Shown: piece after piece, positions 1,835-34,799 of the stretch
Position numbering within the stretch: position 1 is the first letter of the stretch
Layout: each line of letters starts with the position of its first letter
Virus record (IMG/VR): IMGVR_UViG_3300007533_000007
Location: 1 to 37,762 of that record
DNA: 37,762 bases
Origin: a virus
Strand: one strand, 5' to 3'
The notes under the pieces: generated by a model
Told to the model about the DNA's origin: nothing
Databases searched by the model: none
Seen by the model: the letters and a program-made list of their open reading frames with translations, nothing else
Made by a program: the position numbers and the translations under genes

Positions 1835-2496
1835 AAATGTACCGCGTCCTTTCTCCAGGGATAACCACCCTTTTTTTCTTCCTCTATCCTATCCCCGTTG
1901 TATTGCTTGTAGTTGGCAATCCATGTTCCTGCCTGCCTGTGCCAGTTATCTATACGTTTACCCTTACCCTTGTTTTTTCTCCAATCCATATCTTCATAGT
2001 AGTTAATAAACTTCTCCGCTTCCAGTTCCACGTCTTTGGCTAATATGTCGGAATCACTGAAATACTCTCTCACTTCTTCCAAATCGGGGGGTGCACTATT
2101 ATCTTTTTCTTTTTCTTTATCCTTATCCTTATAGCTTAAGCTTTGCTTAACGTTTGCTTTAGCATTGCTTGCACGTGCCAAACCACCCTTTCTACCAGCC
2201 TCAACCCGTTTTTTCCGCTTTTCAGATAGTTTATCATACTGCTTGTCAAGAAACTTTATCCTTGCAAAACCATCATCAGATTTATCAATTATACCAACAC
2301 TTAAGAGCTGCTCTATCTCTGCTGTAGCATTGCTAAAGCGTTTCTTAAGCTTTGCTATAGTTATGCTGCAATCCTGAAACCAATAATATGAACAAACAGA
2401 AATGAACACCCCTTGTGCCTGATATGACTCCAGCGAAATATCATCATTTAGCCATTCGCTTACATGGAATCTGAAATAGGGCAAGTCTTTACTCAT
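1831..2496 (-). CDS. Replication initiation / replisome organiser protein (DUF1376-like)
   Basis: 221 residues. The first 110 resemble the DUF1376 winged-helix domain of phage replication proteins ('YFRFHVSEWLNDDISLESY' with 'GVFISVCSYYWFQDC'), followed by a lysine/aspartate-rich linker (KDKDKEKEKD) and a C-terminal part with 'WRKNKGKGKRIDNWHRQAG' that resembles the helicase-contacting tail of DnaD/lambda O-type proteins. It sits directly before the helicase gene with a 4-bp overlap, the normal place for an origin-binding loader. Origin recognition is inferred from family and context; no origin repeats are visible inside the gene. Confidence 0.75.
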   Translation of the reverse strand: MSKDLPYFRFHVSEWLNDDISLESYQAQGVFISVCSYYWFQDCSITIAKLKKRFSNATAEIEQLLSVGIIDKSDDGFARIKFLDKQYDKLSEKRKKRVEAGRKGGLARASNAKANVKQSLSYKDKDKEKEKDNSAPPDLEEVREYFSDSDILAKDVELEAEKFINYYEDMDWRKNKGKGKRIDNWHRQAGTWIANYKQYNGDRIEEEKKGGYPWRKDAVHL

Positions 2497-2678
2497 ATCT
2501 CCAAATACTCACTTATCTTTATGATTGACGAGGTGTACTCGTCGGGAGTCAATAGCTCCTGCTGTAGCTTAAATTTGAGCCTCTCATACGCCATGATTCG
2601 GTCTTGGTATGGCATACTTTCTACATCTTCCTGATCGAATTCGTAATAGACCCAGTCTTGTATTTCTTGTATGTCCAT
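2493..2678 (-). CDS. Small acidic protein at the head of the replication operon
   Basis: 61 residues, strongly acidic, starting MDIQEIQDWVYYEFDQEDVE, with two helical stretches. It overlaps the replisome organiser by 4 bp. The family is not recognised. Its ATG lies immediately after the T-tract of a strong hairpin (2687-2730), so transcription reaching it either starts downstream of that terminator or reads through it. Confidence 0.75.
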   Translation of the reverse strand: MDIQEIQDWVYYEFDQEDVESMPYQDRIMAYERLKFKLQQELLTPDEYTSSIIKISEYLEI

Positions 2679-2686
2679 AATAAAAA

Positions 2687-2730
2687 AAGCCGACCCCCTC
2701 AGAGGACAAGGCTCTGAGAAGTATCGGCTT
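2687..2730 (-). terminator. Two-tier hairpin terminator or attenuator before the replication operon
   Basis: On the minus strand TAAGCCGA pairs with TCGGCTT (2724-2730 with 2687-2693), enclosing a second perfect pair, CTCAGAG with CTCTGAG (2712-2718 with 2698-2704). GGCT is followed by a run of seven T. This is an intrinsic terminator, but its T-tract ends only a few bases before the ATG at 2678. A 6-bp hairpin (CGGTTT/AAACCG, 2737-2754) precedes it. The arrangement suits either termination after the 98-residue gene or attenuation control of the replication genes. Confidence 0.75.
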
Positions 2731-2833
2731 AATATTCGGTTTATCGGGAAACCGTGTCAGTCCTTGTCACTCACACAGTTCACCATAAATAAGTCAATGC
2801 TTTATATTAATTATTTAAGGCAACTATTACAAG

Positions 2834-3550: not shown

Positions 3551-3580
3551 TTGAAATTGTGACCGTACTTGCCGATATTT
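3551..3580 (+). promoter_or_regulatory. Candidate promoter for the plus-strand cassette
   Basis: TTGAAA at 3551-3556 and TATTTT at 3575-3580 are spaced by 18 bp, compatible with a sigma-70 type promoter. TTTG at 3550-3553 with the same TATTTT also loosely fits the Bacteroidota -33/-7 pattern. Transcription would begin near 3587, just before the structured RNA. It lies in the divergent gap between the 125-residue minus gene and the cassette. Consensus matches are modest, so this is a candidate only. Confidence 0.35.
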
Positions 3581-3586
3581 TAATCG

Positions 3587-3704
3587 TTGACATTTTGAAT
3601 GGATCATTCCTGAAAGTCGTGTGCCCTATCAGGGGCGATCCCCCAACAAATTAGCCTGAAGGCGAATGTGAGGCACACCACATTTTAGCTTTCAGGCTTT
3701 TTTA
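3587..3704 (+). ncRNA. Structured non-coding RNA with predicted pseudoknot and intrinsic terminator
   Basis: Four helices can be drawn on the plus strand. GAATG-GAT-CATTC (3597-3609) and GGGG-CGAT-CCCC (3632-3643) are small hairpins. An 11-bp stem pairs 3653-3663 (AGCCTGAAGGC) with 3688-3698 (GCTTTCAGGCT, one G-U), capped by a second stem AATGTG/CACATT (3665-3670 with 3679-3684). Its 8-nt loop AGGCACAC contains GGCACAC (3672-3678), the exact complement of upstream GTGTGCC (3619-3625), giving a 7-bp long-range pseudoknot. TTTTTT follows the main stem at 3697-3703, so the RNA would end near 3704. No open frame covers it. No known RNA family is recognised. GAATGGATCA at 3597-3606 resembles box B of the neighbouring array (8 of 10). 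Confidence 0.7.
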
Positions 3705-3718
3705 TTAGTCAGTGTGCA

Positions 3719-3826
3719 TAAGAAACCCAAAAAACTGAAACGAGTCAGTACGCTTAATAAACCCAAGATGCTAAAATGAATCACAATAAGTTAGAAACCC
3801 AAGTAGTTGAAATGAATCATAACTAA
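3719..3826 (+). repeat. 36-bp two-box repeat array, upstream block (3 units)
   Basis: Three contiguous units begin at 3719, 3755 and 3791, each exactly 36 bp: box A TAAGAAACCCA (11 bp), a variable 8-mer, box B AAATGAATCA (10 bp), a variable 7-mer. Variable blocks are AAAAACTG/GTACGCT, AGATGCTA/CAATAAG and AGTAGTTG/TAACTAA. The first unit is worn (box B AAACGAGTCA), and a fainter box B (TTATTAGTCA) overlaps the end of the RNA terminator. The last unit ends directly at the AAGGAG ribosome-binding site of the following gene. Confidence 0.95.
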
Positions 3827-3837
3827 AAGGAGTCAAT

Positions 3838-4779
3838 ATGTCTAAAGAAGCCCTTAAAACTGCGATCATAGAAAAACAAAATGGTGAATGTGCTCTGTCG
3901 GAAGCCCCGTTAAAGCCCGACCTCATGCTAGTTGATACCGACCGAATTCTACAAAAAAAGGACGGTGGTATCTATACGACCGAGAACACCCGTGTCGTTG
4001 ATCCTGTCGCTCACATGAAACGACACGGCAACTACAGGGACCGCGAGGAAGCATTGCACGAGTTGAAGGTAATCATGGACGGGAGAGAGAAAGTTCGCCA
4101 GCATGTCAATGCAACGGGCAACCGTATTTTAGCAATGGAACGGGGAACAGATGACCTTGACGTGAATACGATTGATTGGCTCAAAGAACAACAGGATGCA
4201 GCAAAAAAACGTTTGTCAAAGATAGACCGCAAGGTTAAAAAGCATCTGGAAAGAATGCCGCATGAAATCATTAATGCGGCCCTGGATGTGGATTCTGTAG
4301 GTCCGATTACAGTAGCTTATATGATGATCTATATTGACATAGAGAAAGCTCCCTACGTGTCAAGTATGTGGAAATATACCGGCCTTCACACATCATCGCA
4401 CCAACGATATAAGAAAGGGGAAACTTCCGGCGGGAACAAAACACTTCGGACCGCCCTTTATACGATGGCCGAATCGCAGATACGCGGACGCGGTGCTTAC
4501 CGTGATGTTTACGACCGTACAAAGGCGAAGCTTGAAGTCAGTGAAAAGATTACTAAGAGCCGAAATACGCAAGGTAATCTTATTGAATGCAAGTGGAAGG
4601 ACACCAAGCCTTCACACAGGCATGGAGCCGCTATACGGCAAATTATGAAGCATTTCCTTGCCGATTGGTGGATCGTACACCGTACGCTCGAAGGACTTGA
4701 TACTCCAAAACCTTACCCGATAGAAAAGTTAGGACATAAAAACTGGATTTATCCAGAGGAAAGAGGGTGGGAATATTAA
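3838..4779 (+). CDS. IS110-type transposase C-terminal (Tnp) domain protein lacking the DEDD domain
   Basis: 313 residues, with AAGGAG placed 7 bases before ATG. Residues about 142-215 match the IS116/IS110/IS902 transposase domain (Transposase_20): 'VDSVGPITVAYM' (helix-hairpin-helix), 'WKYTGLHTSS' and 'TSGGNKTLRTALY'; Ser186/187 sit where IS110 enzymes carry their nucleophilic serine. A coiled coil (about 110-140) precedes it. The RuvC-like DEDD domain of IS110 enzymes is absent. Instead residues 1-66 look like a worn HNH fold (C18, D33/D35, GG43-44, N50, H59, H63). The C-terminus (255-313) has 'SHRHGAAIRQIMKHFLADWW' and ends 'LGHKNWIYPEERGW'. Known IS110 enzymes recombine DNA with a bridge RNA. 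Here a structured RNA lies upstream and repeat arrays lie on both sides. Function is inferred. Confidence 0.75.
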   Translation: MSKEALKTAIIEKQNGECALSEAPLKPDLMLVDTDRILQKKDGGIYTTENTRVVDPVAHMKRHGNYRDREEALHELKVIMDGREKVRQHVNATGNRILAMERGTDDLDVNTIDWLKEQQDAAKKRLSKIDRKVKKHLERMPHEIINAALDVDSVGPITVAYMMIYIDIEKAPYVSSMWKYTGLHTSSHQRYKKGETSGGNKTLRTALYTMAESQIRGRGAYRDVYDRTKAKLEVSEKITKSRNTQGNLIECKWKDTKPSHRHGAAIRQIMKHFLADWWIVHRTLEGLDTPKPYPIEKLGHKNWIYPEERGWEY

Positions 4780-4789
4780 TCAACACTGG

Positions 4790-5132
4790 AAAGAAACCCA
4801 TAAAGTTGAAATGAATCACGTTCCTTAAGAAACCCATGAAGCAAAAATGAATCATGATAAAAAAGAAACCCAAGCGCCTAAAATGAATCACTTCTCCTAA
4901 GAAACCCAAAATGTTAAAATGAATCATGTGTGATAAGTAACCCACGACTTTGAAATGAATCATGACTCCCAAGAAACCCATATAGTTTAAATGAATCATC
5001 ACTCCCAAGAAACCCATGATAGGAAAATGAATCAGATGGTTTAAGAAACCCAATATGTTAAAATGAATCATTTTTTTTAAGAAACCCATATTATAAAAAT
5101 GAATCAGACCATTTGAGAAACCCAATATATCA
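4790..5132 (+). repeat. 36-bp two-box repeat array, downstream block (9 full units plus a worn end)
   Basis: Units start at 4790, 4826, 4862, 4898, 4934, 4970, 5006, 5042 and 5078, with a final half unit at 5114. The period is exactly 36 bp throughout. Box A is (T/C/A)AAGAAACCCA with single changes in a few units. Box B AAATGAATCA is identical in all nine. Variable 8-mers and 7-mers keep constant length; examples are TAAAGTTG/CGTTCCT, AGCGCCTA/CTTCTCC and ATATGTTA/TTTTTTT. The 8-mer tends to end GTTR. Some blocks look duplicated (AAATGTTA and ATATGTTA; TGACTCC and TCACTCC). The core of box B, TGAATCA, is a near-palindrome. The array ends about 40 bp before the next gene. Confidence 0.95.
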
Positions 5133-5172
5133 CATAACCGCAACGTACATAATAGGCAGTAAAAAAAACACT

Positions 5173-5622
5173 ATGAAATACCTGATAACCTTTCTACTAC
5201 TTCCGTCAGTTATTGCGGCACAATCCATTTCTGTAGCTCCTACTTCATTTAAGGCATGGGGTAAAACTGGATATTATTCATCTATTTCAGCATCCTATAA
5301 AAATATAGGCATTCACTATTTCCATCCGTACAAAACATTGTATTGGAAGAATGAAAATTATGAGGGAAATGGTCCTGAAACAACTCCTGCTTTTGCCATA
5401 TCATATACTCCTATAAACGTAGAGGATATACTGAGAGCTGGTGCTATTATTTTTGATAGGCCTTTTCCGATAAAGATTGGATCTCAAATTAATTTTAAAT
5501 TATCGGCTGGATATTCATTTGGAATAGTTCGAGTATCATATGTTCATATCAGTAATGGATTCGGTATTATGAATGATGTAAATCCTGGTATGGATATGAT
5601 GCAACTATCTCTCAACCTGTAA
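5173..5622 (+). CDS. Secreted PagL-like (lipid A 3-O-deacylase / acyloxyacyl hydrolase-like) outer-membrane protein 1
   Basis: 149 residues, starting at MKYLITFLLLPSVIAAQ, a clear signal peptide; the in-frame ATG at 5113 would spoil it. The mature part alternates as in a small beta-barrel. Near the end is 'YVHISNGFG' followed by 'VNPGMDMMQLSLNL', matching the H-x-S-N plus NPG pattern of PagL, whose His and Ser (here H125, S127) are catalytic and which removes an acyl chain from lipid A in the outer membrane. The expected acidic partner is not obvious. The next gene is a paralogue. A phage copy could alter host LPS during infection; this is inference. Confidence 0.5.
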   Translation: MKYLITFLLLPSVIAAQSISVAPTSFKAWGKTGYYSSISASYKNIGIHYFHPYKTLYWKNENYEGNGPETTPAFAISYTPINVEDILRAGAIIFDRPFPIKIGSQINFKLSAGYSFGIVRVSYVHISNGFGIMNDVNPGMDMMQLSLNL

Positions 5623-5716: not shown

Positions 5717-6151
5717 ATGAAACGTTTACTGATCATTCCATTGATTCTAATCACAACTACTGCAATATGCCAGACAGTTTCATTCGCTCCTTATTCGGCC
5801 AAATTATGGGGACAAACCCCACAAACAGCCACAATAAGTGCTGAATATGAAAACTTTGGTTTGCATATTTTTGCACCGAGGGGGCGCCATGTGAACGATC
5901 AAGGCAACGAAATGGAACTAAGTTTTGCTGCATCATATAAAAAGCCGATACTCCAAAAAGTATTAAAGGCTGGGGTTATGGTATTTAGTCGTCCATTCCC
6001 TACTGATTCTGATTATCAAGTCAATTTTATTATTGATGCCGGATATACTTTTAATGGTGTACGTCTTTCATACGTGCATATTTCCAATTTGGGACTCGGA
6101 AAATACAATACCGGGTTCGATACTTTTCAAGTTACATTTCCGCTTTTCTAA
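5717..6151 (+). CDS. Secreted PagL-like outer-membrane protein 2 (paralogue)
   Basis: 144 residues with a signal peptide (MKRLLIIPLILITTTAIC). It aligns along its length with the preceding protein: 'VSFAPYSAKLWGQT' with 'ISVAPTSFKAWGKT', 'YENFGLHIF' with 'YKNIGIHYF', 'SRPFP' with 'DRPFP', and 'LSYVHISNLGLG' with 'VSYVHISNGFG' (H121, S123, N124). The NPG motif is replaced by 'YNTGFDTFQV', so activity is less certain. It lies 94 bp after gene 1; that gap (5623-5716) shows no gene. A duplication within the plus-strand cassette is likely. Confidence 0.5.
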   Translation: MKRLLIIPLILITTTAICQTVSFAPYSAKLWGQTPQTATISAEYENFGLHIFAPRGRHVNDQGNEMELSFAASYKKPILQKVLKAGVMVFSRPFPTDSDYQVNFIIDAGYTFNGVRLSYVHISNLGLGKYNTGFDTFQVTFPLF

Positions 6152-28033: not shown

Positions 28034-28710
28034 TTATCCTCCTTCACTTCAAATTCGATTACCCACACCCAGGGATTGCTTTCCCAGCTGTACCCTCTAT
28101 CTGCGTTGATGGAATCCCAAAGCTCATGAAACAATTCTTTAGAAGTCATAATGGTCTTCCCAAGGCTATCATCTACGCCTTCTGCCTGAGCATCTTTATT
28201 TGATATATCCTGCACCCGCTCCACGCGGACATCAGTTACAAGTAGTTGAATGCGGGAGGCCCCGCGTGGCATGTGAATAGATGGCTTCCAAGGCATATAT
28301 CCTTTGTCTTCGTACTCCTCTGCAAGCCGTTCAGACAGATCGATCTCCTTATAATGCCCTTCTACGGGCCACATCCGACCAACATTGACTTTATTTCCCG
28401 TTTTGTATTCTACAGTCCATTCTCCATCGTCCGGATCTTGCCTAATCGGCTTCCATGTCTCACGTACCCAAAGTTCATCGCCGGGCTTACCGTATGGGCA
28501 GTTTAATTTATGTCCTCCCCACTTATCTCCGTCGTCATCCTCACTATAGCACAAAAATTCCTGGTTGTCCTCGGACCAGTACGGGTCACAAAATCCATCT
28601 TTAAGCTTAATAACTCTACGCGTCTGCGTCTTTCGCCCGTCCAGGATAGCACGGATCATTTCGCTGTTAAAAATGATCGGCTTTTCGTTTACTTCGGTTG
28701 TGGTTGTCAT
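28030..28710 (-). CDS. ASCH/PUA-like phage protein
   Basis: 226 residues. It has the hallmarks of a common phage family with an ASCH-like fold: 'MIRAILDGRKTQTRRVIKLK', 'GDELWVRETWKP', 'MPRGASRIQLLVTDVRVERV', 'DISNKDAQAEGV' and 'LWDSINADRGYSWESNPWVW'. ASCH/PUA-like domains bind RNA or nucleotides; the exact role in phages is unsettled. It is coupled by ATGA to the duplicated gene upstream. Confidence 0.8.
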   Translation of the reverse strand: MTTTTEVNEKPIIFNSEMIRAILDGRKTQTRRVIKLKDGFCDPYWSEDNQEFLCYSEDDDGDKWGGHKLNCPYGKPGDELWVRETWKPIRQDPDDGEWTVEYKTGNKVNVGRMWPVEGHYKEIDLSERLAEEYEDKGYMPWKPSIHMPRGASRIQLLVTDVRVERVQDISNKDAQAEGVDDSLGKTIMTSKELFHELWDSINADRGYSWESNPWVWVIEFEVKEDK

Positions 28711-29114
28711 ACCGTTACCTCCCGTGCATCTATTACCGTTCCGTCGTCGAAATGGGATTGGTCGAAAGGGTAGACGCCGAGATCAAGCAGATTAATATCA
28801 ATAATCCCTATTTCTGAATTTGCTATACATTCCTTTGTGATAATTTTAATTGCTCCTTGTCTTGTCACCTCCTCATAATATGTTTTACTATCTGCACCTA
28901 AATGAGCCATCAATTCCTCATCCGTCATGCTTTCTATAGGGCGGGCGATGAGAGTGCAATATACAATCCTGATTGTTTCTGTATCCTTCTCATCTTCAAT
29001 ATGTCCAATAATCATATCGCCACAGATGCCAACTATATCCCAGTCCCATCCCCCAGGGTCCCTGAACTTAAATTTTCCATTCGCAAATAGATGCGGATAA
29101 TCTTTCCATTTCAT
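28707..29114 (-). CDS. Hypothetical phage protein, copy 1 of a mosaic pair
   Basis: 135 residues. It starts MKWKDYPHLFANGKFKFRDP after AGGAGGAGAT and ends 'QSHFDDGTVIDAREVTV'. Both ends and the internal 'LIARPIESMTD' are nearly identical to the gene at 34386-34799, while the rest differs. The family pattern (short beta start, 'RP.ESMT..E', late 'DL.VYP') is common in phages of Bacteroidota-type hosts, without known function. Confidence 0.75.
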   Translation of the reverse strand: MKWKDYPHLFANGKFKFRDPGGWDWDIVGICGDMIIGHIEDEKDTETIRIVYCTLIARPIESMTDEELMAHLGADSKTYYEEVTRQGAIKIITKECIANSEIGIIDINLLDLGVYPFDQSHFDDGTVIDAREVTV

Positions 29115-33324: not shown

Positions 33325-33395
33325 TGCCGGAAGCAGGATTCGAACCTGCGCCTCCGGGTTATGAGGCCGGCGGCTTATCCGTTTGCCCTACCTGC
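33325..33395 (-). tRNA. tRNA-Met(CAT)-like gene with a poorly paired acceptor stem
   Basis: On the minus strand the 3' half is canonical: T arm GCAGG-TTCGAAT-CCTGC, anticodon loop CTCATAA (anticodon CAT), 4-bp anticodon stem CCGG/CCGG with one C-C mismatch, and D loop AAACGGATAA closed by GGC/GCC. The 3' acceptor strand TTCCGGC expects GCCGGAA at the 5' end, but GCAGGTA is present (5 of 7 pairs, two mismatches, tight spacing to the D arm). CCA is not encoded. It could be a worn tRNA, an atypical phage tRNA, or a tRNA mimic. Confidence 0.55.
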
Positions 33396-34182: not shown

Positions 34183-34389
34183 TTATACCTTGTTCCAGTC
34201 TACGTTGATTTTCGTTTCATTCTTATCAATGTCATATTCACCAACTTCTATATATTTGATACATATATCATATTCGAATTCTTCTTCAATCTCATCCAGT
34301 TTCTCTTGTATAAGAGGCTTCAATACCTGCTCTACCTCTTCCCGATATTGCTCTACGGTTATTGTGCGACCATCTTGTGTATTAATCAT
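34183..34389 (-). CDS. Small acidic protein, 68 residues
   Basis: The start is set at ATG 34389, overlapping the upstream stop as ATGA. It starts MINTQDGRTITVEQYREEVE and contains a long acidic helix (KPLIQEKLDEIEEEFEYDIC) and a short beta end. Unknown family. It is the last gene before the structured region. Confidence 0.7.
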   Translation of the reverse strand: MINTQDGRTITVEQYREEVEQVLKPLIQEKLDEIEEEFEYDICIKYIEVGEYDIDKNETKINVDWNKV

Positions 34390-34799
34390 ACCGTTACCTC
34401 CCGTGCATCTATTACCGTTCCGTCGCCAAAATGGGATTGAGGACCGGGATAAACTTCTAAATCCAATAGGCATATCATATTATCCATTCTCATTGTTCCT
34501 TGATTTGCAGTAACCTCAAGTACTTCCCGAAACTCCTTTAAGTCTGGTGAAAAATGATGTTCATAATTCCATTTGTGTATTCTATTTAACTCCCTATCCG
34601 TCATGCTTTCTATAGGGCGGGCGATTAATTTGGCGGTCTTTAGTAGTTCCTCATCTTCTTTTAACCACCCCAACACATTTGCACTAAAATTACAAACCCT
34701 ATCTTTCATCACCCTTTCAAGATAGTTTAGAGACTTAGAATTTAATTCTATCTTAAACTTCCCATTCGCAAATAGGTGCGGATAATCTTTCCATTTCAT
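34386..34799 (-). CDS. Hypothetical phage protein, copy 2 of a mosaic pair
   Basis: 137 residues. It shares its first 16 residues (MKWKDYPHLFANGKFK), an internal 'LIARPIESMTD' and its last 12 residues almost exactly with the gene at 28707-29114, at DNA level too, but the regions between differ. The same AGGAGGAGAT start context is used. Recombination at shared ends or recent partial gene conversion is indicated. Confidence 0.75.
   Translation of the reverse strand: MKWKDYPHLFANGKFKIELNSKSLNYLERVMKDRVCNFSANVLGWLKEDEELLKTAKLIARPIESMTDRELNRIHKWNYEHHFSPDLKEFREVLEVTANQGTMRMDNMICLLDLEVYPGPQSHFGDGTVIDAREVTV

What the first reader, a model, noticed from the sequence alone, without database searches (positions are those of the whole stretch)
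3587..3704. Novel-looking RNA with loop-to-upstream pseudoknot and built-in terminator
The terminator hairpin loop (GGCACAC) is the exact complement of GTGTGCC 47 bases before it, and two GC-rich or perfect small hairpins lie around that segment. Seven perfect pairs in a long-range tie within 118 nt are unlikely by chance. It may be the guide or scaffold RNA of the neighbouring protein, or a regulatory leader that switches between pseudoknot and terminator.
Basis: partly seen in the sequence, partly recalled or inferred. Interest (0 to 1): 0.76.

Follow-up and report, generated by a model that had tools for sequence, protein, structure and literature searches.

The report
Phage kissing-loop leader before TIGR-TasH
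Just upstream of a phage RNA-guided DNA nuclease (TIGR-TasH) lies a roughly 105-base RNA whose front hairpin loop pairs with the loop of its own stop-transcription hairpin, an architecture that recurs with compensating mutations in other phages and most likely works as a built-in throttle on the gene behind it.

Summary
GTGTGCC (3619-3625) is complementary to GGCACAC (3672-3678), the loop of a strong + strand intrinsic terminator. Landing in the terminator loop with no linker gives p=0.0035. Comparison decides it. Twelve phage elements, one a second copy in this phage (minus strand, 2776-2682), share the order 5' hairpin, 24-33-nt joiner, terminator hairpin with complementary loop, U-tract, gene. 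In a seven-member subfamily P1 is fully paired with two double-changed pairs, the terminator stem covaries in 7 of 11 pairs, and a second pseudoknot covaries (2 of 5040 permutations). The neighbour is TasH with TIGR arrays; the RNA is not its guide. Most tasH loci lack it, it does not match the repeats, and it also precedes ParB_N-methylase, ParB_N, HNH and replication genes. Best explanation: a transcription-attenuating leader in which the loop-loop pairing forms before the terminator is complete and competes with it, as proposed for the guanidine-IV riboswitch. Structure is well supported. Attenuation, its direction and its signal are inferred. No Rfam match; not mentioned in the main text of the TIGR-Tas paper.

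The parts
3551..3579 (+). promoter-like TTGAAA-17-GATATT, the only + strand promoter-like site between the divergent genes upstream of tasH
   Evidence: weak, shuffle p = 0.15
3601..3641 (+). P0 hairpin; its loop carries the P1 5' strand
   Evidence: MFE fold, (P1 5' strand 0.83 unpaired on average)
3619..3625 (+). P1 5' strand GTGTGCC
   Evidence: p = 0.0035
3632..3643 (+). alternative small hairpin GGGGcgatCCCC in the joiner, competing with P0
   Evidence: sequence; prefix folds
3653..3698 (+). P2, intrinsic terminator hairpin
   Evidence: one of only two canonical terminators recognised in the phage
3672..3678 (+). P1 3' strand GGCACAC in the P2 loop, directly abutting the P2 3' arm
3699..3703 (+). 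U-tract
   Evidence: sequence
3719..3822 (+). TIGR array 1, three 36-bp units
3838..4779 (+). tasH, 313 aa, HNH-type N-terminus plus Nop/Transposase_20 domain
   Evidence: PDB TasH 21kl, E 3.6e-100; 52% identity to Salicola phage CGphi29 SpTasH
4783..5134 (+). TIGR array 2, about ten 36-bp units
2682..2776 (-). second copy of the element: P0 2776-2754 with exact 7-nt loop GACAAGG (2768-2762), P2 2728-2689 with exact 7-nt loop CCTTGTC (2711-2705), U-tract 2688-2682
   Evidence: (p = 0.006)
2493..2678 (-). 61-aa ORF starting 3 nt after the U-tract of the second copy; followed by a replication-initiation-like gene and DnaB

Best explanation
The feature is a roughly 105-nt cis-acting transcription-attenuator leader built as a kissing-loop/pseudoknot RNA. 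Transcription starts just before hairpin P0. When RNA polymerase has made the loop of the terminator hairpin P2, that loop pairs 7 bp with the P0 loop (P1). This holds the terminator's 5' arm inside a closed loop while the 3' arm is still being made, slowing or blocking completion of P2 and letting a fraction of polymerases read through into the gene behind (in the window the TIGR array and tasH). If P2 completes first, a short terminated RNA is released. Shown by computation: P0, P1, P2, their covariation, and P1-before-P2 in equilibrium prefix folds. Inferred: that it controls read-through, that P1 favours read-through rather than termination, and that some factor tunes it.
For: Seven-member subfamily (L015, L028, L031, L046, L047, L104, L105): 98.3% of cells paired, covariation score 0.509 versus 0.235 shuffled (0/500), P1 paired in all with two double-changed pairs, P2 double changes in 7 of 11 pairs. 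Second pseudoknot, joiner with P3 loop: only 2 of 5040 permutations as good. P1 p-values: W copy 1 0.0035, W copy 2 0.006, L017 0.0007, L021 0.0017. W copy 2, L021 and L030 each fold into two hairpins with exactly 7-nt, mutually complementary loops. P1 dominates prefix folds (0.8 or more) before P2 completes in 11 of 12 elements. The start codon lies 3-17 nt after the U-tract in all but W copy 1, leaving little room for another promoter. In six of seven subfamily-1 members a sigma70-like -10 box lies 7-9 nt before P0. Precedent: guanidine-IV riboswitch, kissing with the terminator loop gives read-through (PMC11611296, PMC10907184).
Against: No transcript data. No conserved ligand pocket is seen across the subfamilies, so the signal is unknown. 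P1 and P2 do not share bases and could coexist, in which case P1 would strengthen rather than oppose the terminator. The window's own promoter is weak (p = 0.15). W copy 2 does not show P1 in nested prefix folds. The window elements are related to subfamily 1 by architecture, not detectable sequence (model R1 does not find them). Most tasH loci lack the element.
Confidence: 0.55

Rival explanations
1. It is a free-standing small RNA gene: a promoter, a knotted ~105-nt RNA and its terminator. The RNA acts in trans (RNA target or RNA-binding protein), and the downstream gene is expressed by incidental read-through.
For: Promoter at a fixed distance from P0 and terminator at the other end define a discrete RNA; subfamily 1 has an elaborate double pseudoknot.
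Against: A start codon sits 10-17 nt after the U-tract in ten elements (3 nt in W copy 2) with unrelated downstream genes, which fits a cis leader better. Loop sequences differ completely between elements outside subfamily 1, so no shared trans target is evident.
Confidence: 0.2
2. P1 coexists with P2 as a coaxial kissing complex and only makes a better terminator or a 3' end resistant to exonucleases.
For: In W copy 2, L021 and L030 the P2 loop is exactly the 7 nt of P1 with zero linkers, the geometry expected of a stable kissing complex.
Against: Other strong terminator-like hairpins in these phages show no excess of loop-upstream pairing (18 versus 16.4 expected at p<=0.05); the elements lie before genes rather than after them.
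Confidence: 0.15
3. It is an accessory or guide RNA of the TIGR-Tas system (tracr-like, bridge-RNA-like or a stem-loop tigRNA).
For: Lies next to tasH in at least six loci.
Against: No pairing with edge or loop repeats beyond chance (p 0.11-1.0); absent from most tasH loci; present before non-Tas genes.
Confidence: 0.04
4. The complementarity is a chance feature of an ordinary terminator.
For: 27% of shuffles of the 118 nt contain some 7-bp complement.
Against: Both canonical terminators recognised in the phage show it, it recurs at the expected place before other tasH genes, and it covaries.
Confidence: 0.04

Closest known systems
Guanidine-IV (mepA) riboswitch
   Same: Leader RNA in which a loop upstream pairs with the terminal loop of the intrinsic terminator; the pairing is proposed to hinder the terminator and give read-through (PMC11611296, PMC10907184).
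   Different: Here the tie is a full 7-9 bp helix with no loop sequence shared by all elements; subfamily 1 adds a second pseudoknot; found in phages before tasH, ParB_N, HNH and replication genes; no guanidine-related gene.
TIGR-Tas system (TasH type, Salicola phage CGphi29 SpTIGR)
   Same: The neighbouring gene and 36-bp-period dual-repeat arrays.
   Different: The leader RNA is separate from the arrays; the paper reports no accessory RNA and the searched main text does not mention a pseudoknot (PMC12045711). SpTIGR itself carries the leader.
ColE1 RNA I/RNA II-type 7-nt kissing loops (from memory)
   Same: Two hairpins with exactly complementary 7-nt loops.
   Different: Here both hairpins are on one RNA and one of them is a terminator.
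Type III toxin-antitoxin RNA (ToxI) (from memory)
   Same: Promoter, pseudoknotted RNA, terminator, then a gene reached by read-through.
   Different: No tandem RNA repeats and no endoribonuclease toxin; downstream genes vary.

Membership tests
TIGR-TasH system (neighbouring locus) | Tas protein with HNH-type N-terminus and Nop domain | tested here: met
   PF02371 E 4.9e-5; PDB TasH E 3.6e-100; 52% identity to SpTasH; conserved DxDR...N...H in alignment A1
TIGR-TasH system (neighbouring locus) | Array of two alternating 8-12-nt repeats and short spacers, period about 36 | tested here: met
   period exactly 36; repeats AAGAAACCCA and AAATGAATCA, 8-nt spacers
Guanidine-IV riboswitch | Upstream loop pairs with terminator loop | tested here: met
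Guanidine-IV riboswitch | Conserved aptamer sequence and structure | tested here: inconclusive
   no relevant Rfam match even at E<=10, but presence of this family in the library was not verified
Guanidine-IV riboswitch | Guanidine binding | not testable with these tools
   needs in-line probing
Any Rfam 15 family | Covariance-model score at gathering threshold | tested here: not met
   only a tRNA-like match elsewhere in the window
tracr-like accessory RNA | Anti-repeat pairing to the array repeats | tested here: not met
   p 0.11-1.0
IS110 bridge RNA | Partner is an IS110 recombinase with RuvC/DEDD domain | tested here: not met
   partner is TasH
Type III toxin-antitoxin RNA | Downstream endoribonuclease toxin | tested here: not met
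   downstream genes are tasH, ParB_N-methylase, ParB_N, HNH and replication genes

The most novel reading that the evidence does not exclude
A previously undescribed class of phage RNA switches, in which interchangeable loop-loop pairs tie a 5' hairpin to the terminator loop, controls the timing of DNA-acting phage genes (TasH, ParB_N-methylases, HNH nucleases, replication genes). The seven-member double-pseudoknot subfamily would be a new structured RNA family with its own ligand or protein partner.
Probability: 0.35. Interest if true: 0.8.

Novelty: new variant of a known kind. Interest (0 to 1): 0.62.

Why it matters
How phages express TIGR-Tas nucleases, and how they keep a nuclease or DNA modifier from acting at the wrong time, is unknown. 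A portable leader that throttles such genes would give a direct handle on TIGR-Tas biology: the characterised SpTasH locus carries one. It would also be a compact, sequence-programmable terminator switch, since only complementarity of two loops seems to be conserved across the elements. The covariation makes it testable with a few point mutants.

Tried and rejected
Exact 17-mer from the window in viral contigs: two chance hits. blastn of the element against tasH relatives and terminase relatives: nothing. Phage relatives by DnaB: none; by terminase: seven partial contigs with no DnaB match. Bacterial genome scans: no tasH relative, and one pattern hit in Paenibacillus that lacks the terminator and looks like chance. 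blastn of subfamily-1 members against phages and plasmids: only Salicola phage CGphi29 convincingly. Covariance model R1 on about 1 Mb of these phages: only the seven known members. General claim that phage terminators have loop complements: rejected. tigRNA spacer targets in 2.47 Mb of sequence held: none. Model search in proteobacterial genomes was not possible with the handles available. L034/L036 has a possible variant that I left out as ambiguous.

Full report
What is in the sequence. The second copy sits in the loop of a strong intrinsic terminator (3653-3698, then TTTTT) on the + strand; the 118 nt fold at -42.6 kcal/mol, z = -5.05. The first copy sits in the loop of another hairpin (3601-3641), so this is a loop-loop tie. 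A 7-bp tie somewhere in 118 nt is not rare (27% of shuffles). A tie to the terminator loop with zero linker is rarer (p = 0.0035).

The neighbourhood. The window is a virus record. The gene at 3838-4779 is a TasH: Transposase_20/Nop domain, 52% identical to the Salicola phage CGphi29 protein that the TIGR-Tas paper uses as its TasH example (PMC12045711), and matching solved TasH chains at E 3.6e-100. It is flanked by arrays of exactly 36-bp period with two alternating 10-nt repeats and 8-nt spacers, i.e. TIGR arrays.

Relatives. Twenty-nine tasH loci were fetched (several are duplicates). Reading the DNA upstream of tasH showed the same architecture with different letters in L015 (SpTasH), L017/L018, L021, L028 and L031. 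A systematic scan confirmed these and added L030, where it precedes an HNH gene. A pattern from L015/L028/L031 then found L046 and L047, and a relaxed one L104 and L105; none of these four is followed directly by tas. The same phage carries a second copy on the minus strand at 2776-2682, 3 nt before a 61-aa ORF that heads the replication genes; the two copies are the only canonical terminators I recognised in the window (part of that listing was cut). Most other tasH loci lack the element.

Structure. In the seven-member subfamily (alignment A2) the two longest conserved helices found without prior choice are P2, the terminator stem, and P1, the tie. Counting pairs: 98.3% of cells paired against 28-43% when slid, covariation score 0.509 against 0.235 in shuffles (0/500). 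P1 is paired in all seven with two pairs changed on both sides, and P2 has 7 of 11 pairs changed on both sides. A second pseudoknot joins the P1-P2 joiner to the loop of an inner hairpin; the observed pairing is matched or beaten by only 2 of 5040 permutations, itself included. In the window's second copy, L021 and L030, pseudoknot-free folding alone gives two hairpins with exactly 7-nt loops that are exact reverse complements. Pairs of neighbouring 7-nt-loop hairpins with complementary loops are rare in 4.3 Mb of strand searched (4 hits, two of them the window copy read on both strands; 0.6 expected).

How it probably works. In six of seven subfamily-1 members a sigma70-like -10 box ends 7-9 nt before P0, so transcription would begin at P0. 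The start codon comes 3-17 nt after the U-tract in every element except the window's first copy, where three TIGR units intervene. The gene therefore appears to depend on read-through. Folding of growing prefixes shows P1 at 0.8 or higher once the terminator loop is made, and lost when roughly 10-18 nt of the 3' arm are out, in 11 of 12 elements. This is the competition proposed for the guanidine-IV riboswitch, where kissing with the terminator loop promotes read-through (PMC11611296, PMC10907184). I commit to a kissing-loop transcription attenuator at 0.55. That attenuation occurs, its direction and its trigger are inferred. The main rivals are a free-standing small RNA (0.2) and a kissing complex that only strengthens or protects the terminator (0.15).

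What it is not. No Rfam family matches (only noise at E<=10). There is no pairing to TIGR repeats beyond chance, so it is not tracr-like. Its downstream genes vary (tasH, ParB_N-methylase, ParB_N, HNH, replication genes), so it is not a guide or a type III antitoxin. It is not a generic property of terminators in these phages (18 of 329 at p<=0.05 against 16.4 expected).

Limits. The window's copies share architecture but no detectable sequence with the seven-member subfamily (model R1 finds only the seven members), so common descent of all twelve elements is not shown; convergent use of one design is possible. Individual P1 p-values for the three subfamily-1 members tested are only 0.02-0.03; the case rests on covariation and position. 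No expression data exist here.

Noticed in passing
window 2682-2776 (-): Second element of the same design (7-nt loops GACAAGG/CCTTGTC) directly before the 61-aa ORF that heads the replication genes.
   Followed up: yes
L005 4660-4760, 4783-4884, 5745-5846: TIGR arrays of a TasH relative are interrupted inside a loop repeat by three ~75-90-nt inserts sharing a GGTTGGCTTCAGC...GCCAGCCTG core; an 8-bp stem is predicted but without double compensatory changes.
   Followed up: partly
L104 270-2108: A subfamily-1 leader precedes a ParB_N-N6/N4 DNA methylase fusion; the TIGR paper separately notes ParB-like genes next to tasA.
   Followed up: partly
window 5176-5622 and 5717-6151 (+): Two related short ORFs with sub-threshold matches to PagL (lipid A deacylase) follow the second TIGR array; they look like cargo genes.
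   Followed up: no
window 33325-33395 (-): Rfam tRNA match (45.4 bits) that ARAGORN does not report; perhaps a degenerate tRNA.
   Followed up: no
L017 2577-2656 and L061 427-523: An ORF (26 codons in L017; about 32 in L061) spans the element or an element-like terminator, possibly a leader peptide.
   Followed up: no
window 28707-29114 and 34386-34799 (-): Two ORFs share the same beginning (MKWKDYPHLFANGKFK) and a similar end, with different middles.
   Followed up: no
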